IMG/VR virus record: IMGVR_UViG_3300011013_000090
Coordinates: 1-24,671 of that record
Source: a virus
DNA: 24,671 nt
Reading direction: 5' to 3' (one strand)
The notes beneath the pieces were generated by a model. It was not told where the DNA came from, did not search any database, and was given only the letters and a program-made list of their open reading frames with translations. The translations under genes were made by a program, and so were the position numbers. Of the stretch, positions 5,593 through 24,671 are shown piece after piece (the stretch's first letter is position 1; every line of letters starts with the position of its first letter).

Positions 5593-7065
5593 ATGGCAAT
5601 TACAGCAGGAAGTAATTTGAATAGTGTTTTAGCTCCACAAAAGCAAACATTAGCTTCAAATTATATTGATTTCGCTACAGCAGGTTCTTCGGATGGCTGG
5701 GCACAGCAGTACCTGCCTGACTTAATGGAAAAAGAAGCTGAGGTTTTTGGTAACAGAACTATCTCAGGTTTTTTATCTCAAGTTGGAGCAGAAGAGTCTA
5801 TGACTTCAGACCAAGTAGTTTGGTCAGAACAAGGTAGATTACACCTTTCTTATAAAGGTACTTTAGCTACTGATACTTCGGTAGTAACAATTACACATGA
5901 TATCGATGGAAACGCATTAACAACTACTCATGGTGTTAGATTAAACGATCAAGTTATCGTTGCTACAACAGAAGGAGCGGTTAAATGTTTCGTTACAGAT
6001 ATTGATAACACAACAGTTAACAAAATCACTTGTCGTCCTTATGAAGTAGAGCATATTGATGATGACGCTGCTATTACAGCAGGTCAATCAGCAGCTGCTT
6101 GTACTATACTTGTATTTGGTTCTGAGTATGCAAAAGGAACTGACGGTCAAGGAAGTCACGCAGAGGGACCTAAAGCTATATCTCCTGATTTCAAATCATT
6201 CACTAACAAACCTATTATTATCAAGGATTATTATGAAATCTCTGGTTCTGATACAGCTCAAATTGGTTGGGTTGAAGTTTCTGGTGAAGATGGACAAAAC
6301 GGGTACTTATGGTATTTAAAAGCTGAAGGTGATACTAGAGCTAGATTTACTGACTATTTAGAGATGACTATGATGGAATCTGTAAAAGGTGTTTCTGGTT
6401 CTTCAGCAGTAGATGGTACTGATTCTATTGGTACTAACTTTGGTACTGAAGGTTTATTTGCGGCTATCGAAGATAGAGGTAATGTTACTTCTGGTGTTAC
6501 TGGTGTTAATGCTGCTACTGATTTAGCAGAGTTTGACGCTATCTTGGCTGAATTTGATAAGCAAGGTGCTATTGAAGAAAACATGATGTTTGTCAATAGA
6601 ACTGTAGCTTTAGCAATGGATGACATGCTAGCTTCTATGAACTCTTATGGTTCAGGTGGTACTTCTTATGGAGTTTTTGATAACGAAGAAGAAATGGCAC
6701 TTAACTTAGGGTTCTCTGGTTTCCGTAGAGGTTCTTATGATTTCTATAAATCAGACTTTAAATATCTAAATGATAGATCTACAAGAGGTGGTATTAATGA
6801 TAGAAACACTACGTCTCCTATAAGAGGGGTAATGATACCAGCAGGTGTTACTTCTGTATATGATCAATCTTTAGGAAAGAACCTTAAACGTCCTTTCTTA
6901 CACGTTAGATATAGAGCTTCTCAAACAGATAACAGAAAGCTTAAAACTTGGATCACTGGTTCAGTTGGGGCTACTACATCTGATTTAGATGCTATGCAGG
7001 TAAACTATTTATCTGAGAGATGTTTAATCACTCAAGGTGCTAATAACTTTATGTTAATGAAGTAA
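5593..7065 (+). CDS. Major capsid protein (HK97-fold, crAss-like type)
   Basis: The 490-residue protein fits an HK97-fold major capsid protein. The N-terminal arm carries DGWAQQYLPDLMEKEAEVFG (about 34-53), then a VVWSEQGRLHLSY strand region. A beta-rich insertion follows (about 85-150), then the SHAEGPKAI and FTNKPIIIKDYYEISG elements (about 196-218), and the C-terminal half has the conserved FLHVRYRAS and a terminal MLMK. This general pattern is known to me from MCPs of crAss-like and marine podophages. Codons lean to GGT, GCT, TCT and ACT, as expected for a highly expressed gene. It is followed within 20 bp by a strong intrinsic terminator, also fitting a very abundant product. The ATG is preceded by a run of A, and the second codon is GCA. 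Confidence 0.87.
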   Translation: MAITAGSNLNSVLAPQKQTLASNYIDFATAGSSDGWAQQYLPDLMEKEAEVFGNRTISGFLSQVGAEESMTSDQVVWSEQGRLHLSYKGTLATDTSVVTITHDIDGNALTTTHGVRLNDQVIVATTEGAVKCFVTDIDNTTVNKITCRPYEVEHIDDDAAITAGQSAAACTILVFGSEYAKGTDGQGSHAEGPKAISPDFKSFTNKPIIIKDYYEISGSDTAQIGWVEVSGEDGQNGYLWYLKAEGDTRARFTDYLEMTMMESVKGVSGSSAVDGTDSIGTNFGTEGLFAAIEDRGNVTSGVTGVNAATDLAEFDAILAEFDKQGAIEENMMFVNRTVALAMDDMLASMNSYGSGGTSYGVFDNEEEMALNLGFSGFRRGSYDFYKSDFKYLNDRSTRGGINDRNTTSPIRGVMIPAGVTSVYDQSLGKNLKRPFLHVRYRASQTDNRKLKTWITGSVGATTSDLDAMQVNYLSERCLITQGANNFMLMK

Positions 7066-8027: not shown

Positions 8028-8753
8028 ATGGCAGTAAGTGTAGATACGGTGTACCAAAGAGTTTTAGCGATATCAAACAAGGAACAAAGAGGTTATATAA
8101 CACCTCAAGAATTTAATTTACTAGCCAACCAAGCTCAAATGCAGATTTTTGAACAGTATTTTTATGACTTAAACCAATTTTTAAGAGCTCCACAAAATGA
8201 TACAGAATACTCTAATATGGTAACTGTCTTAGAGGAAAAAATATCTTCTTTTGAAAAATACAAAGTAGCTATGTCAGCTATGTCTGGAAATCAAGCTACT
8301 TTACCAACTGATGTCTATAGATTAGGAACTGTTTTTTACGGCGGTTTAGGTTATGATGTTGAACTAGAAAAAGTTGGTAAAAAAGAATTAGAATATATGT
8401 TAAGAACAAAATTAACATCACCAGTAGATAAACGTCCTGTTTATACTAGAAAATCAAACACTTTATTAAAACTATTTCCAGCATCGCCTTCTACGTCTTA
8501 TACTACAGGTAATGTTACATGTAATTATGTAGCTGTTCCCGCAGAGGCTTACTGGACTTATACTGTTGTTAATAACAAGGCTTTATACAACGCCTCAGCT
8601 AGTGATTTACAAAATTTTGAATTACATGAATCTGAAGAAACATCATTAGTTATTAAAATACTAGAACTAGCAGGGGTAACTACAAAGCAAGTTGATATAA
8701 CTCAATTTGCAAAATCAGAAGAATTACAAAAAACACAATCAGAAAAACAATAA
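8028..8753 (+). CDS. Ring / tail-adaptor-like structural protein
   Basis: The protein has 241 residues. It begins with the segment VSVDTVYQRVLAISNKEQRG (3-22) and continues TPQEFNLLANQAQMQIFEQYFYD. The C-terminal part has NFELHESEETSLVIKILELAGV (about 196-217). I know this pattern from a conserved family encoded next to the head-tail connector genes of crAss-like and marine podophages, where such proteins form rings below the portal. It ends three bases before the next ATG, so the two products are probably made together in fixed ratio. It has no signal peptide and no enzymatic motif. Role by family resemblance from memory and by position; the exact ring assignment is uncertain. Confidence 0.68.
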   Translation: MAVSVDTVYQRVLAISNKEQRGYITPQEFNLLANQAQMQIFEQYFYDLNQFLRAPQNDTEYSNMVTVLEEKISSFEKYKVAMSAMSGNQATLPTDVYRLGTVFYGGLGYDVELEKVGKKELEYMLRTKLTSPVDKRPVYTRKSNTLLKLFPASPSTSYTTGNVTCNYVAVPAEAYWTYTVVNNKALYNASASDLQNFELHESEETSLVIKILELAGVTTKQVDITQFAKSEELQKTQSEKQ

Positions 8754-8756
8754 TAT

Positions 8757-9650
8757 ATGGCGACTAATTACTTATTAACAGAATCACAAGAAAATTACTA
8801 TGATGCTACTGATGTTGATTACGGTGGTTATCAATTTATAGATTTAATTGACATTATTAATAACTTTATGGTTGCTTACGTTGGAGATGGAAAAGTAATA
8901 AATAAAGTAAAAAGAGTTGATGTAGCTTTTCATGCTCAAAGAGCCATGCAAGAATTATCTTTTGATACATTTAAATCTACTAAATCTCAAGAAATAGAAA
9001 TACCAGCTTCACTTACAATGACCCTTCCACAAGACTATGTAAACTATGTAAAACTAACTTGGTCAGATTCTGCTGGTATAGAACATACAATATACCCAAC
9101 TTCAAAAACATCTAATCCTTACGCTATATCTCAAGCCACTGATGGTTCTTATAATAACGATGGAACAAATTTAACAGAACAAGACGCTACAGATCATATA
9201 TCTGATACTTGGGATAAATATAAAGATTCAACTCCAGTTGAAAATTTAGACTCTTATAATTATGATGTATACCCACATGCTGATGGTAAACGTTATGGTA
9301 TAGATCCACAACATGCTCAAGTTAACGGTTCTTTCTTTATAGATCCACTTCAAGGAAAAATCCATTTTAGCTCTAACATTAACGGTAAAACTGTAACCTT
9401 AAAATATATAAGCGATAGTTTAGGAACAGAAGAAGAAATGAAAGTACATAAATTTGCTGAAGAAGCAATGTATAAATGGATAGCACATGCTATTTTATCT
9501 ACTAAGGCAAATATACAAGAGTATTTAGTACAGAGATTCAAAAGAGAAAGATTTGCAGCTGTAAGAACTGCTAAACTAAGATTGTCTAATCTAAAAATAG
9601 AAGAGCTAACTCAAATAATGAGAGGTAAATCTAAACATATAAAACATTAA
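8757..9650 (+). CDS. Tail tubular / head-tail adaptor-like protein
   Basis: The protein has 297 residues. The N-terminal helical part contains VDVAFHAQRAMQELSFDTFK (about 54-73), followed by IEIPASLTMTLPQDYVNYVK (about 82-101). A beta sandwich-like section (GSFFIDPLQGKIHFSS, about 190-206; TVTLKYISDSLG) leads to a long basic C-terminal helix (EEAMYKWIAHAI to the end). A helix-beta-helix layout of this size, between portal/MCP and the big tail protein, agrees with P22 gp4/T7 gp11-like tail accessory proteins reported in crAss-like phages. It would link the portal ring to the tail barrel. Its stop lies four bases before the start of the 1828-aa gene, and the start again has no Shine-Dalgarno sequence. 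Confidence 0.72.
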   Translation: MATNYLLTESQENYYDATDVDYGGYQFIDLIDIINNFMVAYVGDGKVINKVKRVDVAFHAQRAMQELSFDTFKSTKSQEIEIPASLTMTLPQDYVNYVKLTWSDSAGIEHTIYPTSKTSNPYAISQATDGSYNNDGTNLTEQDATDHISDTWDKYKDSTPVENLDSYNYDVYPHADGKRYGIDPQHAQVNGSFFIDPLQGKIHFSSNINGKTVTLKYISDSLGTEEEMKVHKFAEEAMYKWIAHAILSTKANIQEYLVQRFKRERFAAVRTAKLRLSNLKIEELTQIMRGKSKHIKH

Positions 9651-9654
9651 TTAA

Positions 9655-12600
9655 ATGCCGGAAATTAAAAGAGCCTTTTCCGCTAGTAGAATGAACAAGG
9701 ATCTAGATGAGAGACTTGTTCCTGCTGGAGAATATAGAGATGCAAATAATATAGAAATAGATACATCAGAGGATACTAACATTGGTACAGTGCAATCATT
9801 AAAAGGTAACACTGCATTAACCGCAAAGTTTCCTGCTAGTAGTATTTGTGTTGGCTCTATAACAGACGATAAAAACGATAAAATATATTGGCTTGTCGCT
9901 GGAGCGTCTGTAACTAGTAACAATGTAACTATAACAAAAGATTATATAGCAGAATATGATATTCAAAATGCTACATTTAAATATGTTTTAGTTGATATAT
10001 ACGAAGTTAAAATAAAAGCTGAAGGAGCTAGTACCGCAGCGAATGGATTTCTATATGCCCCAGAAATATCAAGTATAGATTCATATAACAATATAGGTAT
10101 AAGGTTAGATATGAAAGTTACATCTACTAATGTAACAGCTGATGATAATATTTATGTTACAGACATACAAACTGATACAAATAAATGGAAGATATTAACG
10201 TCAACAGGATTTGCTACTAGCGACGACGAAGATATAACATTTACATCAGAAAGACTGCTTAATTTTTATGGTGGAGAAATATTAAACGGAAAACATCTTC
10301 CACCTAGATTAATTACAGGTATCAACGTTTTAGATGGAATGTTATTTTGGACAGATAATCATTGTGAGCCTAAAAAAATAAATATAGAAAGATGTATAGC
10401 AGGGACTGGTGGAGTACAATATTTACAAGGCGGTAGTGTTTCTGGTTTTGCATCTACAACAACAACAACAACACATCAAATCTTTGATGGAGATACAGAT
10501 CATTTTCACACTAGACTAGTTTCTTCGAAAAATGGTTTTGATTTAGAAGTTATGACTGATAGATTAAAACAAAAAGCTGTTTGGTTAGATGAAGAACATA
10601 TAACTGTTCTTAGAAAAGCTCCACATACACCTCCTTATTTAGAAATGTCTAGCACTGACGTTCTTAGAACTGACGCCAATGGTAACGCGCTTAATATATC
10701 AACAACAGCCACTAATCTTGCATTTGTAGATTCAAACAACAATTTATTAACTTCAAGTTCCACTGTTTACACTGGTTCTGATGCTATAACTTTTGATACT
10801 AATGTAGATTTTAGAATTGGAGATATAGTTATACTTACTAATAATCCTAATGCTAATACCGCTACGTTTACAGAGCATGAAGTTAGAATACGTATAGAAA
10901 ACACACCAAGTTCTTTACCGCCAAATAATGGACCTTATGATTGGTCACTTTTGTCAATTGATTCTTCTATTTCTACTGGTCAACAAAACTGGTCTGCAAG
11001 ATTAGAACAAAGTAAACCATTATTTGAATTTAAATTTCCAAGATTTGCTTATAGATATAAATATAAAGATGGCGAATATTCTACATTTTCTCCGTTTTCA
11101 GAAATAGCTTTCTTACCAAGTGATTTTGATTACGCTCCTAAAAAAGGATTTAATCTTGGTATGACAAATGAGTTGAGAAGTTTAAAAATAAAAGACTATG
11201 TTGTTGAAGACGCTGCTAGAGGAAGAGATGTTGTAGAGGTAGATATACTTTATAAAGAAGATGGTTCTCCTAATATTTATACTATGAAAAGTATAAAAAT
11301 ATCAGATGACCATCCTAAATGGCCTGACAAAGCAAACCATGCTTATGCTAGAGGTGAATTTGAAATAGAATCAGAATTAATACATGCTACGTTACCTTCT
11401 AATCAATTATTAAGACCTTGGGATAATGTACCTAGATTAGCAAAATCACAAGAAGTTACTGCTAATAGATTAGTGTATGGTAATTATGTTCAGAACTACA
11501 ATATGGAAATTAACAATGAAGAGTTAATACCTTTAGTAGATATAGGCTTAGAAAGCACTGTTGGCGATGGAACTGTATCGCCTAGTAAATCCGTAAAGTC
11601 AATTAGAACATACCAAGTGGGCGTTGTGTATAGAGATAAGTATGGTAGAGAAACACCTGTATTTCCAGGTGACCCACAAAAAAGCGCTATTAAAGTAGAA
11701 AAAAAAGAATGTGCTAAATTCAACAAGTTAACAGCTAAAATGCTAACACCTCCACCTAGTTGGGCTGACTCTTGGAAATTTTTTGTAAAAGAAACTTCTA
11801 ATGAATATTATAACTTAGCACAAGATAGATGGTACAATGCTGAAGATGGTAATATATGGTTGTCGTTCCCATCATCTGAAAGAAATAAAATAGACGAAGA
11901 TACTTTCTTAATACTTAAAAAACAACATGAAAACAATGTTGCTGTAACAGAAAAAGCTAGATATAAAATTTTAGCAATAGAAAATGAAGCTCCAGATTTT
12001 ATAAAAACTAATACTAAAATACTAGGTAAACAATTAAGCACAACTAATAATTGGGTTACTTCTACAACTGCAGGTTTTCCTTTTATAGATTACACTAACT
12101 TTACAATGCAAGATGCTATTAATTTTTATGAAGAATTTGGTGATGGTGGCGCTTTAGATGACGCGGTAACAAAAGCAATGCATGATGGATATTTATTTAT
12201 TAGGATTAGTACAGACACAGTAAAAGGAAAGTTTTATAAACTAGCAAATATAAAAGAGGTTGGTAGCAATATTAAAATAGAAATAGATGGTAAGTTTGGA
12301 GATGATATAAGGTTTGCCGCGCCTGCTCAAACTACAGGTAGTATAGTTAGTGGTTTATTTGTAGAATTAGCAACTAGAATACCTGAAAATAAACCTGAGT
12401 TTGATGGTAGGTTCTTTGCAAAAATATATAAAGATTTAGTTTTAAAAGAAAACGTATTATCTCAAACTTCTTTTGATGGATATAAAGTGATTAGTGCAAT
12501 GTCTTCTTATTATATAAATTATCAAACTTTTGATACTGGAGGTTCTACTGATTTAGTAAATGCTTTAAACAATCCTGGATCAAACACTACATACGTAATA

Positions 12601-15141
12601 ACTCCAAAAGGACATTCTGCGGCAGATGTTAACAGTATGGCCTCTGGACCTATTGGCGCATCAGATCTTAAAAAAGCAGTAAAAAGTTGGTGGAGAGCTT
12701 GGGGGGCTGGTTGGTTTATAGATAGTGCTATAACAGCAAACGAGAATGAAGCTGCTGGCTCGTCAGGAGAGGCAGATATTCAAGATTCGCTTGGAGTAAC
12801 AGCACCAGCAGATAACGCTTTAGATAGCTCTGGAACTGGACGTATAGCCTCTGGACAACACGGTATTTTTGATGCTACATCTAGTAATAATACGCAAGGT
12901 ATAGTTGGATCAAATAAAAATATAGCACTATCATGGTCTGGTATATATCCTACAGGTACATCATTAGAAACAGTGCCCGCAACAACATCATCAGCCGGTG
13001 GAGATAATAACCATACACATAGTTCTTCTCCAATATATAGTGTTGGAACTGGTGCGCATCTTCAACAAGCGTTAGTTGTTCAATATCTATCAACACCTGG
13101 AACTCAATTTAGATTTAAAGACGATCCAGATAGTTTTGTTTACACTATAAAAGACTCACAAAGAACAGAAGATTTACTTAATTACGATGCTCGTAGAAAT
13201 TCCATAGCAATTGATGATTCTTTTTTAGAGTGTGCAAATAAACGTTTGAGACTTACGCTTACTGTAGAAAATCAAAATGGAAATGGAATTGGAGTAGATG
13301 GATTACAATATAGTCCTATAACAACTGGAGCAAATCCAGTTTGGTCACCAGCGTCAAGTACATCACCAGTTGTAATAGAGTTTGTAGAAGAGTTTGATGA
13401 AGACGATACGCAAGAATCTAGTTCTAATCCTGGTATATGGGAAACAGAACCAAAAGAAGATGTTGGATTAGATATTTATTATGAATCAACACAAGCCTAT
13501 CCAATAAAATTAAACGCAAGAACAAACGAGCAATATGCAGTTATAGGTTCTGTAGTAGAAAACGAAAATACAAGTTTTGGTACAACGTTAACAGTTAAAT
13601 CTTGGAGTGATCAAACTGTTACTTTAAGTGCTCAAATACCAACAGCAATAGCAGTTGATGATATAATATCTTTTACAGCCCCTGATGGTGGCGTAACTAG
13701 ATTAGTCGTTAAAACTGCTGTTACAGCTGCAACATCAAGTCAAATAGAATTTTATAATCACGCTTTTGGACCTCCTAGTCAAACTTTACCTGGACACTCT
13801 CCATGTTATCAAAAAGTAACATTACCATTTTTTAATTGTTATTCTTTTCAAAATGGAGTAGAATCAAATAGAATTAGAGATGATTTTAATGCTATGACAA
13901 TAGACAAAGGAGTTAAAGTGTCAACAGTTTTTGCTCAGCATTATGAAGAAGAGAGATTAGGTAGTGGGTTAATACATTCTGGAATATACAATTCAACAAA
14001 TGGTATAAATAATTTAAATCAATTTATAGCAGCAGAAAAAATAACTAAAAACTTAAACCCAAGACATGGCGCTATACAGAAACTATATAATAGGGATACA
14101 AATTTAATAACAATTTGTGAAGATAAAGTTTTTAATATTTTAGCAGATAAAGATGCTTTATTTAATGCGGATGGTAGTGCTCAATTAATCGCGTCTAATA
14201 AAGTATTAGGACAAATAACTCCTTATGGTGGAGATTATGGAACTCAAAATCCAGAATCATTTGTATCTGATAATTATAGATCTTATTTTACTGATAGAAT
14301 TAGAGGGGCGGTATTAAGATTATCAATGAATGGTATAACACCTATATCAAAAGCTGGTATGTCTGATTGGTTTAATGATAATCTAAAAGGTAGTACTGAT
14401 TCTTCATATAAAAATAGTGTAGAAAGTATAATAGGTACTTTTGATAGTAAAAAAGGTTTATATAATGTAACTATTAAACAAATTCAAGAAACAATAAAAG
14501 GTGTTTCCTTTGAATCAAAAGATCCTACATATTATACCGTTAGTTATAGCGAACAAGCAAAAGGTTGGGTTAGTTTTAAATCTTTTTATCCAGAAAGCGG
14601 AATAAGTATAAATAATAATTATTATACATTTAAAGATGGTGAATTATACAAGCATCATGATAATAGCACTTATAATAATTTTTATGGAGTACAATATTAT
14701 TCAGATGTAACAGCTATATTAAATGACCAACCGGGATCAATAAAAAGTTTTAATACTATAAATTACGAGGGAAGTCAAGCAAAAATAGATGCATATACAG
14801 GTGCAGATGGAGAGTATTATAATTTAACCGCTAGCAAAGGTTGGTATGTAGACTCTATATCAACAGATCAACAAACTGGAATTGTCCCAGAGTTTATAGA
14901 CAAAGAAGGTAAATGGTTTAATTATATAAGAGGTGAATCTACTACATTATCTAATTTAGATCAAAAAGAATTTTCTGTACAAGGTATAGGTGTAGCATCA
15001 ACAGTATCTGGCTCTGGAGAAACTAACACACATACATTTACAGTTGCTAACAATACAAGTACAACTTATAATCCAGACACAGAAAGAGACGGAAATACAG
15101 ATGGCGCTGCAGATGGTGTTTGGGATTCATCAGCAGATTAA
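9655..15141 (+). CDS. Giant tail stabilization / muzzle-type protein (1828 aa)
   Basis: The N-terminus RAFSASRMNKDLDERLVPAG (6-25) followed by EYRDANNIEI is, from memory, the hallmark of a tail stabilization family widespread in crAss-like and marine podophages. The C-terminal third keeps other hallmarks: NPRHGAIQKLY and ITICEDKVFNILADKDALF (about 1468-1500), ITPYGGDYG...NPESF (about 1521-1537), YFTDRIRGAVLRLS (about 1543-1556), GMSDWFNDNL and IIGTFDSKKGLYNV (about 1592-1605). Such proteins are beta-propeller/beta-sandwich tail components, named muzzle in crAss001. Between the hallmarks lies a very long, poorly conserved-looking beta-rich region with a Ser/Gly/Thr-rich stretch (about 1020-1135), suggesting inserted decoration domains. 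The end (1812-1824) carries a DxNxDGxxxD calcium-binding-like pattern. Six consecutive Thr occur at 268-273. There is no signal peptide or transmembrane segment. ATG chosen because the hallmark starts at residue 5. Confidence 0.82.
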   Translation: MPEIKRAFSASRMNKDLDERLVPAGEYRDANNIEIDTSEDTNIGTVQSLKGNTALTAKFPASSICVGSITDDKNDKIYWLVAGASVTSNNVTITKDYIAEYDIQNATFKYVLVDIYEVKIKAEGASTAANGFLYAPEISSIDSYNNIGIRLDMKVTSTNVTADDNIYVTDIQTDTNKWKILTSTGFATSDDEDITFTSERLLNFYGGEILNGKHLPPRLITGINVLDGMLFWTDNHCEPKKINIERCIAGTGGVQYLQGGSVSGFASTTTTTTHQIFDGDTDHFHTRLVSSKNGFDLEVMTDRLKQKAVWLDEEHITVLRKAPHTPPYLEMSSTDVLRTDANGNALNISTTATNLAFVDSNNNLLTSSSTVYTGSDAITFDTNVDFRIGDIVILTNNPNANTATFTEHEVRIRIENTPSSLPPNNGPYDWSLLSIDSSISTGQQNWSARLEQSKPLFEFKFPRFAYRYKYKDGEYSTFSPFSEIAFLPSDFDYAPKKGFNLGMTNELRSLKIKDYVVEDAARGRDVVEVDILYKEDGSPNIYTMKSIKISDDHPKWPDKANHAYARGEFEIESELIHATLPSNQLLRPWDNVPRLAKSQEVTANRLVYGNYVQNYNMEINNEELIPLVDIGLESTVGDGTVSPSKSVKSIRTYQVGVVYRDKYGRETPVFPGDPQKSAIKVEKKECAKFNKLTAKMLTPPPSWADSWKFFVKETSNEYYNLAQDRWYNAEDGNIWLSFPSSERNKIDEDTFLILKKQHENNVAVTEKARYKILAIENEAPDFIKTNTKILGKQLSTTNNWVTSTTAGFPFIDYTNFTMQDAINFYEEFGDGGALDDAVTKAMHDGYLFIRISTDTVKGKFYKLANIKEVGSNIKIEIDGKFGDDIRFAAPAQTTGSIVSGLFVELATRIPENKPEFDGRFFAKIYKDLVLKENVLSQTSFDGYKVISAMSSYYINYQTFDTGGSTDLVNALNNPGSNTTYVITPKGHSAADVNSMASGPIGASDLKKAVKSWWRAWGAGWFIDSAITANENEAAGSSGEADIQDSLGVTAPADNALDSSGTGRIASGQHGIFDATSSNNTQGIVGSNKNIALSWSGIYPTGTSLETVPATTSSAGGDNNHTHSSSPIYSVGTGAHLQQALVVQYLSTPGTQFRFKDDPDSFVYTIKDSQRTEDLLNYDARRNSIAIDDSFLECANKRLRLTLTVENQNGNGIGVDGLQYSPITTGANPVWSPASSTSPVVIEFVEEFDEDDTQESSSNPGIWETEPKEDVGLDIYYESTQAYPIKLNARTNEQYAVIGSVVENENTSFGTTLTVKSWSDQTVTLSAQIPTAIAVDDIISFTAPDGGVTRLVVKTAVTAATSSQIEFYNHAFGPPSQTLPGHSPCYQKVTLPFFNCYSFQNGVESNRIRDDFNAMTIDKGVKVSTVFAQHYEEERLGSGLIHSGIYNSTNGINNLNQFIAAEKITKNLNPRHGAIQKLYNRDTNLITICEDKVFNILADKDALFNADGSAQLIASNKVLGQITPYGGDYGTQNPESFVSDNYRSYFTDRIRGAVLRLSMNGITPISKAGMSDWFNDNLKGSTDSSYKNSVESIIGTFDSKKGLYNVTIKQIQETIKGVSFESKDPTYYTVSYSEQAKGWVSFKSFYPESGISINNNYYTFKDGELYKHHDNSTYNNFYGVQYYSDVTAILNDQPGSIKSFNTINYEGSQAKIDAYTGADGEYYNLTASKGWYVDSISTDQQTGIVPEFIDKEGKWFNYIRGESTTLSNLDQKEFSVQGIGVASTVSGSGETNTHTFTVANNTSTTYNPDTERDGNTDGAADGVWDSSAD

Positions 15142-17188: not shown

Positions 17189-17192
17189 AAAT

Positions 17193-17570
17193 ATGGCAAC
17201 AATAACAATGGTTTTTCCAGATCCTTTAAACGTATCGCTACAAATTGGCGACACAGCTTACTATGTACCTACTAATACTCATGGTGGCTTTTTAACATCT
17301 TTAAATAGTGGTGCTACCGCTGAAGAAACAATAGTAGAAATAGGTGCTGTAGCTAGTATAATACAAAATACAAATACTATAACAGTAACAACAAGTTTAA
17401 CAACAGCTAATTTACCAACAACAAGTCATTATATATTTTTTAGTAAAGATAACAAAGCTAATTTAAGTACAATGCTAGGTTATTATGCTGAAGTTAAGTT
17501 TTCAAATAACTCTACAACAGAAGCAGAATTATTTAGTATAGGTGCCGATATCTTTGAAAGTAGTAAATAA
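17193..17570 (+). CDS. Small virion-type protein of unknown function
   Basis: The 125-residue protein is predicted to be mostly beta. It contains LQIGDTAYYVPT (about 16-27), a central VEIGAVASIIQNTNTITVTT strand pair (about 50-69), and ends with KFSNNSTTEAELFSIGADIF and ESSK. I recall small proteins with this 'V-GD-AYY ... ELFxxxxxIxESSK' layout in marine phage structural regions but know no experimental function. It starts four bases after the fibre-like gene and likely belongs to the same message, so a fibre partner, chaperone or minor decoration is possible. The second codon is GCA, there is no Shine-Dalgarno sequence, and the stop is TAA. Confidence 0.6.
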   Translation: MATITMVFPDPLNVSLQIGDTAYYVPTNTHGGFLTSLNSGATAEETIVEIGAVASIIQNTNTITVTTSLTTANLPTTSHYIFFSKDNKANLSTMLGYYAEVKFSNNSTTEAELFSIGADIFESSK

Positions 17571-17614: not shown

Positions 17615-18307
17615 ATGTATAAACACAAGCAACCAACATTTTATAACAATATGAAAAGTCCATTTAAATCTATAGGTGGTACTAGTCCAGTAAAACAATT
17701 AGGACAAGGAATAGGTCAATTAATAGGTTCAGTTGGAGCTAAAAAAAGAGCTAAAAAAGAATTAGGAAAAGCAAAAGAAGAATATCGTGACGTTAAAGCT
17801 GATTACATGGCTATGGATTTTAGTAATCCTTATGCTAATATGGAAAACACAATGGAAGATTTAACTATAAACCAACAAGCCGCAGATCAAGCTGCTCGAC
17901 AGTTTCAAGCATCTCAAGCTAACATATTAGGTCAAGTACAACAAGGTGGTCAATTTAACGCTGGTAATATACAAGCTTTGGTTGGGGCTGGTCAACAGGC
18001 AGCGGCGGCAACGTCAGCTGATATAGGTAGACAAGAAGCAGCTAATCAAGCAGCAGCGGCTAGACAAGCAGCGCAATTACAAACAGCTGAAAGAAAAGGA
18101 GCGGCGGAAATGGCAGAAGCTGAAAGAGGAAGAACTGAAACATTATTTGGTATGGGAATAGAAAGACGAGGCGCTGCAGAAGCTGCAAAAGCTGAAGCAG
18201 ACGCAATGAGAGCTCAAGGATATGGTAACGTTATTGGTGGTGTAGTTGACTTAGGTGTTAAAGCAGCAACAATGGGTATGGGTGGACTTCCTGTAAAACC
18301 TCAATAA
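17615..18307 (+). CDS. Gln/Ala-rich internal virion-like protein (T7 gp14-like by size and position)
   Basis: The protein has 230 residues. The N-terminal half has a Gly-rich helix (GQGIGQLIGSVGAKKRAKKE, about 30-49) and the segment DFSNPYANMENTMEDLTINQ (about 68-87). A long Ala/Gln/Glu helix rich in QAA and AAEAA repeats runs from about 90 to 200, and a hydrophobic Gly-rich end follows (YGNVIGGVVDLGVKAATMGM). Small, helical, Ala/Gln-rich proteins with Gly-rich hydrophobic ends are typical of phage ejection proteins such as T7 gp14. The position at the head of a small-medium-giant gene trio strengthens this, but it remains inference. An alternative start at 17651 (MKSPFKS) would remove 12 residues; the first ATG was kept because its leader (AAATATAAAATT) matches the other genes. 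Confidence 0.62.
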   Translation: MYKHKQPTFYNNMKSPFKSIGGTSPVKQLGQGIGQLIGSVGAKKRAKKELGKAKEEYRDVKADYMAMDFSNPYANMENTMEDLTINQQAADQAARQFQASQANILGQVQQGGQFNAGNIQALVGAGQQAAAATSADIGRQEAANQAAAARQAAQLQTAERKGAAEMAEAERGRTETLFGMGIERRGAAEAAKAEADAMRAQGYGNVIGGVVDLGVKAATMGMGGLPVKPQ

Positions 18308-18327
18308 AAATAAATAAAGAAAATAAT

Positions 18328-20055
18328 ATGGCAATAAATGAAACATTAGTAAACGCATCTAAAGCTGCTAATCAAGCTAAATTAGAGGCAACGGCTAACT
18401 TTAGTGGTCTAAGTGGTGCTGATTCAGCTATAAATAAATACCTTGATCATAAAATAGACATGAAGCATGATGAAGACAAAAGAAAAGCAGATGAAGAATA
18501 TCAAGAATATTTAAAACAAAAAGAAGAAAAAGAAAATGAAAAAATAGTTGAAAATGCCGTAGAAAATTCAGCTGAAAGTTTAAATGATGAAAACACAATT
18601 GTTTCTTCTTTACAAATGAAAACTCCTTTTACTTATAATCAAGGATTAGTAAATGCTGCTTCAAAACTTTATAAAAACCGAAGATATGCTAACAATGCTT
18701 TAGGTAATGCTTTAGCCAAATCAGGTACAGCAATAGATGGTTCTATTCAAGATATGATGGATGATTTTGATTTAGAAGCAAAACTAAAAAAGGAAGAAGA
18801 GAGATTAAAAGAAGAAAAGTCACAAGCAGAAAAAGATAGACAGCTAAAAATTATTGACGATAGAATATTAGAATCTAATCAAAACAACTTGTCACAGCAT
18901 GGTTCTAAAATGTACAACGAAGTACAAGATCAGTTATATGGTTTAAGAGATGAATATTTAAGAGTATTAGACGAAGATCCTAAAAATACAAGAGCCTTAA
19001 ACGATATAAGAACAGAATTAACAAAACTAGATGGTCAATTAACCGCTTTTTCTACAGGTGCTATTGCTTATGATAGCGCTGTTCAAAAAGATAATTTTTC
19101 AGCTGGTATGGATAAAGATACTAAAAGTTTATTAGACGCATATTATACACATGGAGATAAAGTAGAAATTGAAGGTAAGGATTGGACATTTGAAAAACAA
19201 TACATTGATGGAGAATATAAGATGATTATTCAAGATCCATCATCAGCAAATATAGTTTCAGAACTTGAAAGCAAAATAAAATCTTTAGAAGAGCAAAAAG
19301 GAATGTTTAGCGAAGACGAATATAACAATGTAATGGCTTCACATAAAGAAGAATTATATAAATATAAAAGAACATTAAGTCCTAAAGAGCAATTTACTGC
19401 TAGTTCATTAGTACAAAAAGTAGATGGCTCTCCTTTAAACAACTTTTATAGTTTAATGGAGAAAACATCAAACGCTGGAAGAGTGGTTACAAAAGATGAA
19501 ATAACAGGGACAATAAGAAGTCTAGTTAAAGATAAAGCATCTTTAATTTCTTACGCTAACGATCCTATACCAGGGCAGGGTAAAAGTATGAGAGAACATT
19601 TTACAGAAATGTTTCCAGAAGGTATACCTATAGAAAAAGAAGATGGAGTTGTTGATTATGTAACTATTGATCAAATATTTAACGCTCAAAGCCCTTATTT
19701 TAGAGAAAATCAAGGACAGAAAGTACTAGAAGAATTAGTTGTTGATTATTATACTAGAATAGGTATTAATAAATTTAATAAGCAAAAAGTTGGAGATGCT
19801 AATATAATATCAGTAGAGAACGACTATGGATCAACAACGTTTGGCTTAAGTAGAGAAGAAGGTGATAAGTTTAGAAGTTGGATACATGAAAACTATCCAG
19901 CTTATGCTGAAGAAATAGATTTAGACAAAAGTTATAAATCTTTTACAAACAAATATATAGCTACAGCTTGGGAAAAATATGGAGAAGAATATCAAAAAAC
20001 TATGGCTGGACAAAGATATGATGATATAGTAACAAAGTATAACTTAGAAGATTAA
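18328..20055 (+). CDS. Helical coiled-coil virion/ejection-type protein of unknown function
   Basis: The 575-residue protein is highly charged (Lys, Glu, Asp). Coiled-coil stretches lie at about 45-75 and 150-175, where LKKEEERLKEEKSQAEKD is clear, and again at about 310-350. The C-terminal ~50 residues form a distinct module: DKFRSWIHENYPAYAEEIDL (about 512-531), then FTNKYIATAWEKYGEEY (about 537-553). I recall comparable 'FRxWxNxxYPxYAxxIDLD ... AWxKYG' modules in marine phage virion proteins but cannot assign a role. There is no enzyme motif, signal peptide or membrane helix. It sits between the gp14-like gene and the giant last gene, the relative place of T7 gene 15, so an ejection-tube or cargo component is the favoured, unproven idea. 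Confidence 0.58.
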   Translation: MAINETLVNASKAANQAKLEATANFSGLSGADSAINKYLDHKIDMKHDEDKRKADEEYQEYLKQKEEKENEKIVENAVENSAESLNDENTIVSSLQMKTPFTYNQGLVNAASKLYKNRRYANNALGNALAKSGTAIDGSIQDMMDDFDLEAKLKKEEERLKEEKSQAEKDRQLKIIDDRILESNQNNLSQHGSKMYNEVQDQLYGLRDEYLRVLDEDPKNTRALNDIRTELTKLDGQLTAFSTGAIAYDSAVQKDNFSAGMDKDTKSLLDAYYTHGDKVEIEGKDWTFEKQYIDGEYKMIIQDPSSANIVSELESKIKSLEEQKGMFSEDEYNNVMASHKEELYKYKRTLSPKEQFTASSLVQKVDGSPLNNFYSLMEKTSNAGRVVTKDEITGTIRSLVKDKASLISYANDPIPGQGKSMREHFTEMFPEGIPIEKEDGVVDYVTIDQIFNAQSPYFRENQGQKVLEELVVDYYTRIGINKFNKQKVGDANIISVENDYGSTTFGLSREEGDKFRSWIHENYPAYAEEIDLDKSYKSFTNKYIATAWEKYGEEYQKTMAGQRYDDIVTKYNLED

Positions 20056-20070
20056 TAAATATAATTTAAT

Positions 20071-23000
20071 ATGACACAGGCACAATTAAAAAGTATAGTA
20101 CGTAAGATGGTAGACGCTGGAGAGCCAGACAGTACTATAGGTGAATTTATAGAAGAATACAAAAAAAGAAATACCGAGGGAAAGAAAAAGGGCTCCACAA
20201 AACGTGCGAGTGTGGGGCCAAGCCTAGCACTAAAAAATATGGCTTATCCATCGGTAAATGGTTTTTTGGACTCACCAATTAAACACCGCGATACTGGTAC
20301 TGCCCATGATAGCTTAAACACAAGAGATCATATGGACGCTCATTCTAAAGGTGGTGAATATCATACAGATAAAGTTCAGTTTCCAGAAATAGCAGCAGCT
20401 ATAAATGAATCAAACGACTATAAATTAGGAAGTTTAAGTAAATTGGCTGAGCAAGGTATAAAAACGATTGATAATCGTAGAAAAAATGAAGAGATTTATC
20501 GACAAAAAAACTCAAATCAAAAACTTAGTAAAGATTTAGAAAATGCTAAGAAAATAGGAGAAATAGAAACTCACGATGGAATAGTATCTGAATTTGATGC
20601 GTTAATGAGTAGTACAATTAAAGATCAGAAAAAACTTCATGGAAATGTATCTGATGAATTAATGAGGTATATTGATGATGTATACGCTGATGATCCCGCT
20701 AAACGTAAAGAGTTTGAAAGAATGTTTGAAACTAGAAGATACAGTAAAATAATTAACAAGCTTCAAACATACGAATTTAGTTTAGAAAGCGCAAGTAGAT
20801 TAAAAGATAGAGCTTTTGATCCTGATTACAAGAAAATGATAAAAAATTTAGAGGAGCTTGAAAAAAACAATAACTCTCTTTATCCTTATTTAAAAAGAAA
20901 ATCACTTAAAGAAAAAGAAAAAAATAAGTTAGAAAAACAAAAAGACATTGAACTCACAAAACCTAAAGATGATTACACGCTTGATATAGATAACTATACT
21001 TTTTGGAAAGATGTAGTACAAAGTAATATGAATGACTTTTCATATTTAGATGATTATAACGCGAGTTTGAAAAGAAAGTATCAGGAAGATTATGACAAAG
21101 GAATTAATGACTATGGAGATTTTAGAACGAAACAAAATAAAGAGTTAATTACTGAAGGACACAAAGCTTTTAATAGATTTTTAGGAAAAGATCACCCAAA
21201 AAATATAACAAGAAAAAAACACAACGGTACATATAAATGGTTTAATATAAAAACTGGCACTTACTATAATGCAGATAGTAAATTAGCAAAACATTTAGAT
21301 AAGTATGGACTACCAACCGAACAGCAAATGATACAATACGGTAGTTTAGAGGGTGGTGAAGAGTATCGAAGTAAACAAAAACCAAAACACGTGCAAGATC
21401 TTTTAAGTGGGCAAAATGAGTTATTTAATCTTCGAAATACATATGTAGAAGTGGCTAAGAAGAAAAGCGCTTCAAGACAAAAAGATGAAATATTTGGAGA
21501 CGTTAAAAATGTTTCTGTTACAGCTGATAATAAAACAATTATTGATTCTCAATTTTACGATGAAGGCTTAGATCAAGTAGTACCGGTTTCTAGCGCAATA
21601 GCTAATCAAGCTTATGAAGGTGGTGATGGTACTTTTTTGGTAGATGGAATAGAATATAAAAGAACAGATTTACGTGATACATTTACAACCATTTCTGGAA
21701 AAGAAAAAATTGCCAAAATTAAAACTATCTTGCAAACAAAAAGTTCAAATGGAGAATGGGTGGCAATTAATCCAAGTGAGCATCTAAATATACAGTTAAG
21801 CATGTTACCTAGATATACTATTGAAGGTAAAGACGGTGTAGAGTATGAGTTTACCGCAGTTAAAGGTGATATTAAAGGAGACGTATATAAACAAATATAT
21901 AAAAGAAAAAAAGGAGAAAAAGATTGGAGCAAGTATAACGATGAGATAGAAGGAATTGAATATTACGAAGATAAAGAAGCTTGGGATGAAGATAGTCCAA
22001 CTCAAACACAATATGAATTTTCTTTAATAAGACAAGGTGGAGCTACTCATGACGATGCTGTTGTAACTGAAAATATTTTAGATGCAATAACCAAAGGAGT
22101 TAGTAGTCCAGATTTTACAGGTTTTAATATACAATCATTGTCAAGCCTTGCTAAAACGATGCATAACTATATAGTAGCTTCATCTCACTCAAGTATAATT
22201 GAGTCTTATCATGATGAGATAGATCGAGCGGAGTTAAAAAATATTAAAGAAAAAATTGATGAGCAAGAAAAAAAAGACGATAAAAAGATTGTAAAATCAA
22301 AATTTAGAGCAGATAAATATCTTGAGAAAGCGCAAAAGGATGATTTTTGTAAAGAACACGATTTAAATATAGTTAGAGACGATTGGACGTTTGATTCTGA
22401 TAAAGGAGAGTTTTTTCATAAAGAATTAAAAAATAAGAGTGGAAAACCAACATCACTTTCTGATCACATGAGACATTTATCTGGTAAAACTAACTTAACA
22501 GGTGACGATTACGAATCTTACAAAAATATAGAAAGTAATTTACTTATATCTTACTACAATAATTTAGGATCTGATGACGCTAGAATGTATATCTCCCCTA
22601 AAAGCGTGGATTTGTTAGTTGAATATAATCATTTAAGAGAGCGTTTTTACGAAGATGATGATTATGATAATGAATTATATACAGATAGAAATTATATTTA
22701 TATTGCAAATGGATCTCATACACATGATAATAAAACGCTTAGTAGAGTCAATGAAAATTCTGTTGAAGAAATAATTAAGCATCTTAAAAGAGGTGAATTA
22801 ACAACAAATGTTTTAAAAGATGATGGTAGAACGACGTTTGTTGATGATCTTGAAAACCCTATAATAGGAGATGATGGGGAGCAATTAATGATAAATGGTG
22901 AGCCAGCGTATACAAAAATAGAAAAAAAAGTTACATTACTTGATCCAAAAAACAATAGAGAAGATAGAAGGTTTCTTCATAAATTATTAAATACCCACAA

Positions 23001-24671
23001 AAATGATAATTTAACGCCAATGCAGTTGCGTTTTGAAATAGGGAAGTATTTAAAAGAAAAAGGTATAGAAGATAAATATAGCGGATTTGATCATGAAACT
23101 ATCAAGTCATTATCGAATGGATGGGAGCAGTATGATTGGTCGACGGTGCGAGACGATGAAGAACTTAAAAAGACTATCGATAATGATCCGATACTTGGTC
23201 AAATTATTAAAATATCAGACAGACAATATCAAGAACAAAAATTTCATGAATATTGTGAAGACAAAGGAAAAACTAAAGCATATAAAGAAGGCGCTACTTT
23301 TTATGGAAAAACAAAAACACAAAAATCATCAATTAAGGGATATCGAAAAGATATAAAGACAGCTAAAGAAGCAGAGGGATTAATGGATATTAAGCTTAAT
23401 GCTTTAGAAAGTACTTTTGAAAATTATCAGACACGTTACATTCAAATGAATGATAAAAATGGTGAGTTCTCAAAAGAAATAGAACTAGGGCAAGAAAAAA
23501 TAACCTCTACGTATAATGAATTTAATAGGCTTGCTAAAGAAGGTAAAAAATTAGATGGTACTTATTATGCGTCAATGGAAGAGTTTGAAGAAGAGGTTGC
23601 GAAGTTAGAAAAAATGAAAACTGATTTCCAAGCTAGTGTAGACAAAAAAGTAAAAGAAAGAGAAGATCTTATAGATGCAATGATTGAGGTATCAGAAAAT
23701 ATGCAAACTTTAGGAGATATGGATTTTGCTTTTGAGAATGCGCGAGATACATATAAATCATTTTTACATTCAGCAGAAAAGAAACAAGGTATACTTTCCG
23801 GAATAGCAGCAAGAATGCAAACAAGTTTTGCTAACTTATCAAATAATCTAAATCAATTTGCTTTTGAAATTTCTAATGATTTATTAGATTACGCAGGTAT
23901 TGTTGACAGCGAAGAATATAAAGCTTGTGTAGATGGTTATAATGAAACAATTAAAGATTTTAATGAAAATGTTATGTCTGATGTTGTTGAAAGTAGAGAC
24001 TTCTCCGATATTGGAGGGGATGGTAGCTATGTGTTTGATACGATTAAATACATGACTGATGTTGCCGCTGAAAATTCTGCTGTTACTTTAGTAGCTATTG
24101 CCACAGCAAATCCTTATGCTGCTTTTGGATTAGGATACGTGAGTGGTGCAGGTTCAAAATATAGAGAAATGCGAGATTATGCAGACCTTCATGGGATAAC
24201 ATATACCCCAATGCAATTTCATTTAACTGCTAATGCTTTTGGACTTGCAGAAGGAACTACAGAGCTAATAACATTTGGACTAAGTCAAAAGCTGTTAAAA
24301 AAGGTTGGTGGTGATCAGTATTTAAAAAGAGGATTTAGCGGCCAATACACAAGTAGATTTTTAGCCTCTTCTATAATTATAGAACCTGGTACAGAAGGAT
24401 TATCAGAAGGTGTTAATCAATTAGTTGGTAATATATTAGATAGAGAAGCTTTAGGTAGGTCAGATGTAGGTTATTTTGATGATGTTCCAATGGCTATAAT
24501 AAACGGTACGATGGCCTCTCAAATTATGTATACAACACCTGCAATTGGGATTGATTTAGTTAAAACTTTTTCCAGTAAAGATTTTAATCAAAAAATTGGA
24601 GAAAATTCAGAAAGATTAAAACAAATTAAACTTTTATTAGCTAAAAAAGATTTAGATGCTAATGTTAGAAA
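20071..24671 (+). CDS. Giant virion/cargo-type protein, 3'-truncated (at least 1533 aa)
   Basis: A single frame stays open from the ATG at 20071 to the last base, 1533 complete codons with no stop, and continues beyond the window. The start lies 15 bp after the previous stop behind an A/T-only leader. The N-terminus (MTQAQLKSIVRKMVDAGEPD, then IGEFIEEY, to residue 30) is a short helical segment of a type I associate with giant phage virion proteins. A low-complexity link follows, then some 1200 charged helical residues with coiled coils, and beta-type inserts near 490-650 and 900-960. Hydrophobic, Gly/Ala-rich segments occur at about 1331-1360 (AVTLVAIATANPYAAFGLGY), 1385-1405 and 1470-1497. 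Hydrophobic helices late in a giant soluble protein suit an ejected protein that enters the host membrane, like T7 gp16. No lytic transglycosylase, protease or RNA polymerase motif was seen. A crAss-type cargo or virion RNA polymerase whose active part lies downstream cannot be excluded. Confidence 0.7.
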   Translation, partial: MTQAQLKSIVRKMVDAGEPDSTIGEFIEEYKKRNTEGKKKGSTKRASVGPSLALKNMAYPSVNGFLDSPIKHRDTGTAHDSLNTRDHMDAHSKGGEYHTDKVQFPEIAAAINESNDYKLGSLSKLAEQGIKTIDNRRKNEEIYRQKNSNQKLSKDLENAKKIGEIETHDGIVSEFDALMSSTIKDQKKLHGNVSDELMRYIDDVYADDPAKRKEFERMFETRRYSKIINKLQTYEFSLESASRLKDRAFDPDYKKMIKNLEELEKNNNSLYPYLKRKSLKEKEKNKLEKQKDIELTKPKDDYTLDIDNYTFWKDVVQSNMNDFSYLDDYNASLKRKYQEDYDKGINDYGDFRTKQNKELITEGHKAFNRFLGKDHPKNITRKKHNGTYKWFNIKTGTYYNADSKLAKHLDKYGLPTEQQMIQYGSLEGGEEYRSKQKPKHVQDLLSGQNELFNLRNTYVEVAKKKSASRQKDEIFGDVKNVSVTADNKTIIDSQFYDEGLDQVVPVSSAIANQAYEGGDGTFLVDGIEYKRTDLRDTFTTISGKEKIAKIKTILQTKSSNGEWVAINPSEHLNIQLSMLPRYTIEGKDGVEYEFTAVKGDIKGDVYKQIYKRKKGEKDWSKYNDEIEGIEYYEDKEAWDEDSPTQTQYEFSLIRQGGATHDDAVVTENILDAITKGVSSPDFTGFNIQSLSSLAKTMHNYIVASSHSSIIESYHDEIDRAELKNIKEKIDEQEKKDDKKIVKSKFRADKYLEKAQKDDFCKEHDLNIVRDDWTFDSDKGEFFHKELKNKSGKPTSLSDHMRHLSGKTNLTGDDYESYKNIESNLLISYYNNLGSDDARMYISPKSVDLLVEYNHLRERFYEDDDYDNELYTDRNYIYIANGSHTHDNKTLSRVNENSVEEIIKHLKRGELTTNVLKDDGRTTFVDDLENPIIGDDGEQLMINGEPAYTKIEKKVTLLDPKNNREDRRFLHKLLNTHKNDNLTPMQLRFEIGKYLKEKGIEDKYSGFDHETIKSLSNGWEQYDWSTVRDDEELKKTIDNDPILGQIIKISDRQYQEQKFHEYCEDKGKTKAYKEGATFYGKTKTQKSSIKGYRKDIKTAKEAEGLMDIKLNALESTFENYQTRYIQMNDKNGEFSKEIELGQEKITSTYNEFNRLAKEGKKLDGTYYASMEEFEEEVAKLEKMKTDFQASVDKKVKEREDLIDAMIEVSENMQTLGDMDFAFENARDTYKSFLHSAEKKQGILSGIAARMQTSFANLSNNLNQFAFEISNDLLDYAGIVDSEEYKACVDGYNETIKDFNENVMSDVVESRDFSDIGGDGSYVFDTIKYMTDVAAENSAVTLVAIATANPYAAFGLGYVSGAGSKYREMRDYADLHGITYTPMQFHLTANAFGLAEGTTELITFGLSQKLLKKVGGDQYLKRGFSGQYTSRFLASSIIIEPGTEGLSEGVNQLVGNILDREALGRSDVGYFDDVPMAIINGTMASQIMYTTPAIGIDLVKTFSSKDFNQKIGENSERLKQIKLLLAKKDLDANVR
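20191..20219 (+). other. GC-rich hairpin inside the start of the giant gene
   Basis: GGCTCCACA (20191-20199) pairs with TGTGGGGCC (20211-20219) over 9 bp, with one G-U, around an 11-nt loop. It covers codons 41-50 of the giant gene, right after an A-rich run (20182-20190). Such GC-rich pairing is unusual in this A/T-rich genome. Read on the minus strand it is followed by a T-rich tract, as in an intrinsic terminator, although that strand has one C-A mismatch and no gene. Confidence 0.55.

What the first reader, a model, noticed from the sequence alone, without database searches (positions are those of the whole stretch)
20071..24671. Giant unstopped reading frame with late membrane-like segments and no recognised domain
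Manual reading shows no stop across 1533 codons to the window edge. The protein is mostly charged helix, then turns hydrophobic and Gly/Ala-rich near residues 1331-1360, 1385-1405 and 1470-1497. This is what one expects of a virion protein injected into and across the host envelope, but I see no known catalytic motif. It could be a new giant ejection/cargo protein or the front part of a fused virion polymerase.
Basis: partly seen in the sequence, partly recalled or inferred. Interest (0 to 1): 0.62.

Follow-up and report, generated by a model that had tools for sequence, protein, structure and literature searches.

The report
Front half of giant phage ejection protein
The long open frame is the first part, cut off by the end of the contig, of a giant protein that short-tailed phages of Bacteroidota appear to carry in the virion and push into the host; it looks built on the same membrane-anchor-plus-metallopeptidase plan as the phage N4 virion RNA polymerase, but its full-length relatives carry no polymerase.

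Summary
In detail: 1,533 codons without a stop run to the end of the contig, which is the whole window, so the protein is truncated. The gene is the last of a small-medium-giant trio (230 aa, 575 aa, >1,533 aa) downstream of a crAss-type muzzle, in a podovirus related to Elemovirus and Pervagoviridae. The same trio occurs in nearly all of the 31 loci examined. The 'late' hydrophobic part (residues 1310-1522) is a conserved all-helical core found in about 21 of 30 relatives' giants, usually near residues 200-1100 of proteins of 1,700-3,900 aa. Beyond the point where the window stops, relatives carry a zincin metallopeptidase (HExxH...E), often a HAD phosphatase, and a 670-aa helical C-terminal region. 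Profile comparison matches the core to the membrane-binding N-terminal domain of N4-family virion RNA polymerases, and the zincin to their C1 domain. No polymerase family was found in 17 giants. Best reading: a giant ejection protein that works like N4/DEV vRNAP or T7 gp16, without the polymerase. 'Ejection protein' is well supported; 'fused virion polymerase' is not. Presence in virions and membrane insertion were not tested for this phage. It is a new variant of a known kind.

The parts
20071..24669 (+). Giant ejection protein, N-terminal 1,533 residues; frame open at the contig end
20071..20178 (+). N-terminal ~36-aa helical module (type A), shared with several relatives' giants and found only at their N-termini among the loci searched
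20179..23997 (+). Charged, mostly helical region (residues 37-1309); no homologue found
   Evidence: AF2 helix prediction of residues 1060-1533 only, pLDDT 48
23998..24636 (+). Conserved hydrophobic helical core (residues 1310-1522), with the invariant glutamate pair E1442/E1446 in 'EPGTEGLSEGVNQLVGN'
   Evidence: profile match to the N4 vRNAP NTD
18328..20055 (+). Medium gene of the trio (575 aa), predicted periplasmic-tunnel-like ejection protein by position only
   Evidence: position; no sequence relative found
17615..18307 (+). Small gene of the trio (230 aa, Gln/Ala-rich), homologous to phi38:1 gp99, elemo gp20 and relatives; predicted outer-membrane-pore-like ejection protein
9655..15141 (+). 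Muzzle/nozzle protein (1,828 aa) with a crAss muzzle C-terminal domain; the gate the ejected proteins would pass
8028..9650 (+). Two virion structural proteins (241 and 297 aa), tail-ring/adaptor-like by position
5593..7065 (+). Probable major capsid protein (virion structural protein family phrog_13704)
1949..4396 (+). Portal protein
1..1947 (+). Terminase large subunit, 5' end cut by the contig start

Best explanation
The frame encodes the N-terminal 1,533 residues of a giant ejection protein, probably about 3,500-4,500 aa when complete (inferred from relatives), of a podovirus of Bacteroidota. Shown here: it is the last gene of a conserved small-medium-giant trio behind the muzzle; residues 1310-1522 are a conserved hydrophobic helical core; in most relatives with the core an HExxH...E zincin motif follows about 170-350 residues after it, with a 670-aa C-terminal region and often a HAD phosphatase further on. 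Inferred: the protein is stored in the capsid and leaves through portal and muzzle, partly unfolded, after the small and medium proteins have bridged the outer membrane and periplasm. Its core then lodges in the inner membrane as the end of the DNA channel. The C-terminal enzymatic part reaches the cytoplasm, where the zincin may cut the polypeptide free or attack host proteins and the HAD domain dephosphorylates an unknown substrate. It works like N4/DEV virion RNA polymerase or T7 gp16, with a different payload in place of the polymerase.
For: Window gene order terminase, portal, capsid, rings, muzzle, small, medium, giant. The trio small (~200-320 aa), medium (~310-865 aa), giant is present in nearly all of 31 loci; the small protein is homologous across them and in phi38:1, elemo, phi13:2 and Gundel. 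Positional homologues in isolates (phi38:1 gp101 1,691 aa, phi13:2 gp127 1,990 aa, elemoE gp18 3,694 aa, Gundel gp74 2,482 aa) are annotated as structural or virion structural proteins. Core: BLAST to phi38:1 gp101 E 4e-6, then about 21 of 30 giants at E<1e-25. Zincin: 27 of 28 giants of at least 1,900 aa have HExxH, 0.3 expected from shuffles; H, E, H and the downstream E are invariant in 13 aligned. HAD: motif residues invariant, Pfam DUF2608 in 8 of 8. Core profile versus 13 Schitoviridae NTDs: hhalign score 38.0; reversed control 20.3, 60 column shuffles at most 17.4, unrelated profiles at most 13.9. In a grid of giant-domain profiles against 9 vRNAP segments, only core-NTD and zincin-C1 stand out, in the same order in both proteins. 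N4 NTD inserts in nanodiscs (PMC12633501) and the DEV vRNAP is identified as an ejection protein (PMC10925440).
Against: The window itself shows no zincin, HAD or C-terminal region; these are inferred from relatives. Residues 37-1309 match nothing. No window segment reaches the usual transmembrane threshold. hhalign's own probability for core versus N4 NTD is only 33-39%, over about 60 columns, and the window core alone gives P 0.03. No significant match to T7 gp14-16 or to crAss001 gp45-50. About nine giants lack a detectable core, including those of the nearest relatives by muzzle and by portal. phi38:1 and phi13:2 lack HExxH, and several giants lack HAD. The AF2 model of the core region has pLDDT 48.
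Confidence: 0.78

Rival explanations
1. Fused virion RNA polymerase of the N4 type: the polymerase domain lies beyond the contig end.
For: The core resembles the NTD of N4-family vRNAPs, which precedes their polymerase; the gene trio has the same order as N4 gp52-51-50.
Against: No RNA polymerase family in 17 relatives' giants in Pfam or PHROGs, while N4 gp50 is recognised as phrog_2206 with E 0; no RNAP-segment match in profile comparisons; no DFDxD motif. In most relatives with the core, the zincin follows it within about 170-350 residues, leaving no room for a polymerase between them. The PHROGs negative says little about crAss-type RNAP, which the library missed in crAss001 gp50.
Confidence: 0.04
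2. Multidomain polyvalent effector that is packaged and injected, but whose hydrophobic core is only a packing or folding module and forms no part of a membrane channel.
For: Large size, late-gene position and a zincin MPTase in relatives fit phage-type polyvalent proteins (PMC5512222); hydropathy peaks are below the transmembrane threshold.
Against: The core matches a part of the N4 vRNAP domain that, isolated, inserts in nanodiscs (PMC12633501), and the gene is the third of an ejection-type trio.
Confidence: 0.12
3. Static internal scaffold or tail structural protein that is never ejected.
For: Homologues are annotated only as 'structural protein'; no ejection experiment exists for this group as far as found.
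Against: Trio order, hydrophobic core and catalytic domains in relatives.
Confidence: 0.05
4. Assembly or reading-frame artefact.
For: The frame runs off the contig end.
Against: Codon-position GC is steady over the frame, the start module is conserved, and a giant frame sits at the same place in nearly all relatives.
Confidence: 0.01

Closest known systems
phi38:1 gp101 and the giant 'structural proteins' of Pervagoviridae, Pachyviridae and Elemovirus
   Same: Same position at the end of the morphogenesis module, same small protein upstream, homologous hydrophobic core.
   Different: Core lies at residue ~1310 here but ~260-520 in those with the core; the region before it is unrelated; phi38:1 and phi13:2 lack the zincin motif.
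N4/DEV virion RNA polymerase (Schitoviridae, phrog_2206)
   Same: Giant last gene of a small-medium-giant trio; core profile matches its NTD; in relatives a zincin HExxH domain matches C1.
   Different: No polymerase domain in relatives; HAD phosphatase in many instead; the C-terminal region shows no match to N4 C2.
T7 gp14-gp15-gp16 ejection proteins
   Same: Same gene order behind the nozzle gene and same general plan.
   Different: No significant sequence match for the small protein or the core; no lytic transglycosylase domain recognised in this fragment.
Phage-type polyvalent proteins (Iyer et al. 2017, PMC5512222)
   Same: Giant multidomain, late-gene position, zincin metallopeptidase in relatives.
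   Different: HAD domain and the 670-aa C-terminal region are not in the passages of that paper read here; only five weak Pfam matches among the 17 giants scanned, none of a polyvalent-protein domain.
crAss001 muzzle and cargo proteins (PMC10172136)
   Same: Homologous muzzle C-terminal domain; large proteins encoded directly behind the muzzle.
   Different: No significant match of core, HAD or C-terminal profiles to gp45, gp46, gp47, gp49 or gp50.

Membership tests
Podovirus ejection-protein cassette (T7 gp14-16, DEV gp73-71, N4 gp52-50) | Consecutive small, medium and giant genes downstream of nozzle/muzzle | tested here: met
   Window 17615-24669; nearly all of 31 related loci; same order in T7 and N4
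Podovirus ejection-protein cassette (T7 gp14-16, DEV gp73-71, N4 gp52-50) | Protein present inside the virion | not testable with these tools
   Only by analogy: positional homologues annotated as (virion) structural proteins
Podovirus ejection-protein cassette (T7 gp14-16, DEV gp73-71, N4 gp52-50) | Ejected and inserted in the host envelope | not testable with these tools
   Hydrophobic core only; hydropathy below the transmembrane threshold
Podovirus ejection-protein cassette (T7 gp14-16, DEV gp73-71, N4 gp52-50) | Sequence homology to T7 gp14/gp15/gp16 | tested here: inconclusive
   No significant match; ejection proteins diverge strongly (PMC10925440: 7% identity of DEV gp72 to T7 gp15)
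N4-type virion RNA polymerase (phrog_2206) | Membrane-binding N-terminal domain | tested here: inconclusive
   Profile match score 38 against controls of about 20 or less; hhalign probability only 33-39%; window core alone P 0.03
N4-type virion RNA polymerase (phrog_2206) | Single-subunit RNA polymerase domain | tested here: not met
   Not in the 1,533 residues seen; absent from 17 relatives' giants with N4 gp50 as positive control
N4-type virion RNA polymerase (phrog_2206) | Zincin HExxH domain (C1) in the C-terminal half | tested here: inconclusive
   Beyond the window end; present in relatives and matches C1 by profile, P 6e-5 over 23 columns, mostly the motif itself
Phage-type polyvalent protein (PMC5512222) | Large multidomain protein encoded among late/virion genes | tested here: met
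   Position; multidomain shown in relatives only
Phage-type polyvalent protein (PMC5512222) | Zincin MPTase or another listed effector domain | tested here: inconclusive
   Contig ends before the expected site; 27 of 28 relatives' giants of 1,900 aa or more have HExxH
Crassvirales cargo / virion RNAP proteins | Sequence relation to gp45-gp50 of crAss001 | tested here: not met
   No significant hits with core, HAD and C-terminal profiles, and only isolated weak hits by reverse search

The most novel reading that the evidence does not exclude
Giant ejection proteins of Bacteroidota podoviruses and the virion RNA polymerases of Schitoviridae share a common chassis: a membrane core followed by a zincin metallopeptidase. 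The enzymatic payload is interchangeable, RNA polymerase in Schitoviridae and HAD phosphatase or other modules here, so the N4 vRNAP would be one polymerase-bearing version of a wider class of injected giants.
Probability: 0.42. Interest if true: 0.75.

Novelty: new variant of a known kind. Interest (0 to 1): 0.52.

Why it matters
How short-tailed phages get giant proteins across the Gram-negative envelope is known from a few model phages (T7, P22, N4/DEV). This points to a large set of marine and environmental Bacteroidota phages with a giant ejection protein outside Pfam and largely outside PHROGs, and offers a sequence-level bridge to the membrane domain of the N4 virion RNA polymerase. If the bridge holds, the roles of the membrane core and of the metallopeptidase, whose function in N4 is open, can be tested in relatives that lack the polymerase.

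Tried and rejected
Whole giant in tblastn against 50,697 phage records and in IMG/VR: no relative, so homologues were reached through the muzzle and portal instead. AF2 on residues 1060-1533 gave an all-helical model with pLDDT 48, not usable for fold search. AF2 on the relatives' zincin (pLDDT 61) gave no convincing PDB match, so the zincin call rests on the conserved HExxH...E pattern and weak profile hits to metallopeptidases. HAD profile against PDB: nothing significant. The first iterative profile took in a coiled-coil stretch of the window (1139-1206) and was rebuilt with stricter limits. The core alignment was too divergent for a degenerate-pattern scan. N4's TAxxA injected-protein motif (recalled from memory) is not conserved in the cores. 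Small and medium proteins show no sequence match to T7 gp14/gp15, N4 gp52/gp51 or crAss001 gp45/gp46. A nearer relative by portal, 71-72% identical, was found in a MAG contig; its 2,498-aa giant has HExxH, HAD and C-terminal region but no detectable similarity to the window's part.

Full report
OBSERVATION. The frame starts at ATG 20071 and runs 1,533 codons without a stop to 24669. The window is the whole contig record, 24,671 bp, and no longer version is held, so the protein is cut by the contig end. Length and codon-position bias exclude chance. Residues 1-1309 are charged. That is significantly clustered against shuffles but below the usual transmembrane threshold of 1.6. Pfam, PHROGs and NCBIfam recognise nothing in the fragment.

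SURROUNDINGS. Upstream lie terminase, portal, major capsid protein, two ring-like structural proteins and an 1,828-aa muzzle with the crAss muzzle C-terminal domain. Then come a 678-aa and a 125-aa protein, a 230-aa Gln/Ala-rich protein, a 575-aa protein and the giant. The portal is 53% identical to phage MW202828, 42% to Elemovirus phages and 38% to Callevirus phi38:1, and more distantly related to Pachyviridae. Closer relatives by portal, 71-72% identical, are in metagenome-assembled genomes. In nearly all of the 31 related loci checked, the giant is preceded by a medium protein of about 310-865 aa and a small one of about 200-320 aa. The small protein is one homologous family that includes phi38:1 gp99 and elemo gp20. 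This is the order of T7 genes 14-15-16 and of N4 genes 52-51-50. In Pseudomonas phage DEV the same trio is transcribed together and was identified as ejection proteins (PMC10925440).

THE GIANT IN RELATIVES. Whole-protein searches find no relative. Through the muzzle gene I fetched 80 related loci and then the giants of about 25 contigs, 1,975-3,572 aa in the frames held. The hydrophobic part of the window protein is homologous to phi38:1 gp101 (30% identity, E 4e-6). Iterated profiles find it in about 21 of 30 giants at E<1e-25. It lies at residues ~200-1100 of those proteins; in the window it lies at 1310-1522, behind an exceptionally long, unmatched N-terminal part. Two glutamates (E1442 and E1446 here) are invariant in the 16-sequence alignment.

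Further on, 27 of 28 giants of at least 1,900 aa contain HExxH, where 0.3 would be expected from shuffles. Both histidines, the glutamate and a glutamate further downstream are invariant in 13 aligned sequences: the zincin pattern. Weak profile hits to PDB zincins (CAAX prenyl protease and an M60 peptidase) agree. In most giants with the core the motif sits 167-352 residues after it; in elemo and Gundel the gap is longer, 637-819. In the relatives whose core is closest to the window's it is about 256-260, so the window probably ends some 250 residues short of it (inference).

Many giants then carry a HAD phosphatase (DFD[DE]T ... LTAR ... K ... DD; Pfam DUF2608 in 8 of 8), a 670-aa C-terminal region and a Cys/His tail (DUF5763-like). 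phi38:1 and phi13:2 have the core but not the zincin motif.

LINK TO N4. The core profile gave a weak hit to N4 gp50 residues 276-444. I therefore built a profile of 13 Schitoviridae vRNAP N-terminal domains. hhalign aligns the second half of the core with N4 residues ~380-445: score 38.0, P 4e-4, probability 33%. The reversed profile scores 20.3, 60 column-shuffled profiles at most 17.4, and unrelated profiles at most 13.9. Six random halves of the core alignment all give the same place, P 0.001-0.013; without the window sequence P is 3e-4; the window core alone gives 0.03. In a grid of the giants' domain profiles against nine segments of full-length vRNAPs, only core-NTD and zincin-C1 stand out, in the same order along both proteins. 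The N4 NTD is the domain that inserts in nanodiscs (PMC12633501). I regard common descent of the core as likely but not proven. The zincin match is mostly the motif itself and could be convergent.

NOT A POLYMERASE. PHROGs recognises N4 gp50 with E 0, but Pfam and PHROGs find no RNA polymerase in 17 giants, and no crAss-type DFDxD motif is seen. That library missed the crAss RNAP, so the negative is weaker for that type.

MECHANISM. Shown: trio order, conserved core, zincin, HAD and C-terminal region in relatives. Inferred from T7, N4, DEV and crAss001 (PMC10925440, PMC12633501, PMC10172136): storage in the capsid, exit through portal and muzzle in a partly unfolded state, small protein in the outer membrane, medium protein across the periplasm, giant in the inner membrane through its core, enzymatic part in the cytoplasm. 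As in polyvalent proteins (PMC5512222), the zincin may release the payload by self-cleavage or act on host proteins. That choice is open.

TURNOVER. The relative with 71-72% identical portal has a giant whose N-terminal part shows no detectable similarity to the window's, yet keeps HExxH, HAD and C-terminal region. The front of the protein thus seems to be replaced far faster than the rest of the module. A short N-terminal module of about 30-36 aa occurs in at least five types, in tandem in some; its function, perhaps docking for packaging, is speculation.

VERDICT. A giant ejection protein of the N4/T7 kind, truncated by the contig, without evidence for a polymerase: a new variant of a known kind.

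Noticed in passing
window 9655-15141: The crAss muzzle C-terminal domain (PF25729, E 7.5e-11) occurs here outside Crassvirales; muzzle length in related contigs varies from about 1,410 to 3,330 aa.
   Followed up: no
window 20071-20178; N-termini of giants in L043, L014, L008, L039, L026, L015, L023, L002, L060: Giants begin with short modules of about 30-36 aa of at least five apparently unrelated types, some in tandem; related phages use different types.
   Followed up: partly
L174 (G051:C28): A relative with 71-72% identical portal has a giant with no detectable similarity to the window's N-terminal half, while HExxH, HAD and C-terminal region are kept.
   Followed up: partly
window 15152-17570: A 678-aa protein of unknown family and a 125-aa protein sit between muzzle and ejection trio. 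The 125-aa protein matches the end of phrog_18548 whose beginning matches the muzzle C-terminus, which suggests a split or fused gene in other phages.
   Followed up: no
L094, L096, L097 giants, C-terminus: C-terminal Cys/His tail (QC..iKS.G.RCK..T....GlCYyHD, DUF5763-like), present twice in tandem in several giants.
   Followed up: no
L003 38851-49935 and L006 10108-17556: The elemoE giant carries DUF3293 (E 1e-12); the Gundel giant has a sub-threshold GNAT acetyltransferase-like stretch: different payloads in the same gene.
   Followed up: no
L160 (CP070801.1) and L139, L147, L149, L153, L165, L166: Contigs of these phages sit in archaeal metagenome bins, one inside a 1.05-Mb 'Aenigmatarchaeota chromosome'; probably binning or assembly errors.
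   Followed up: no
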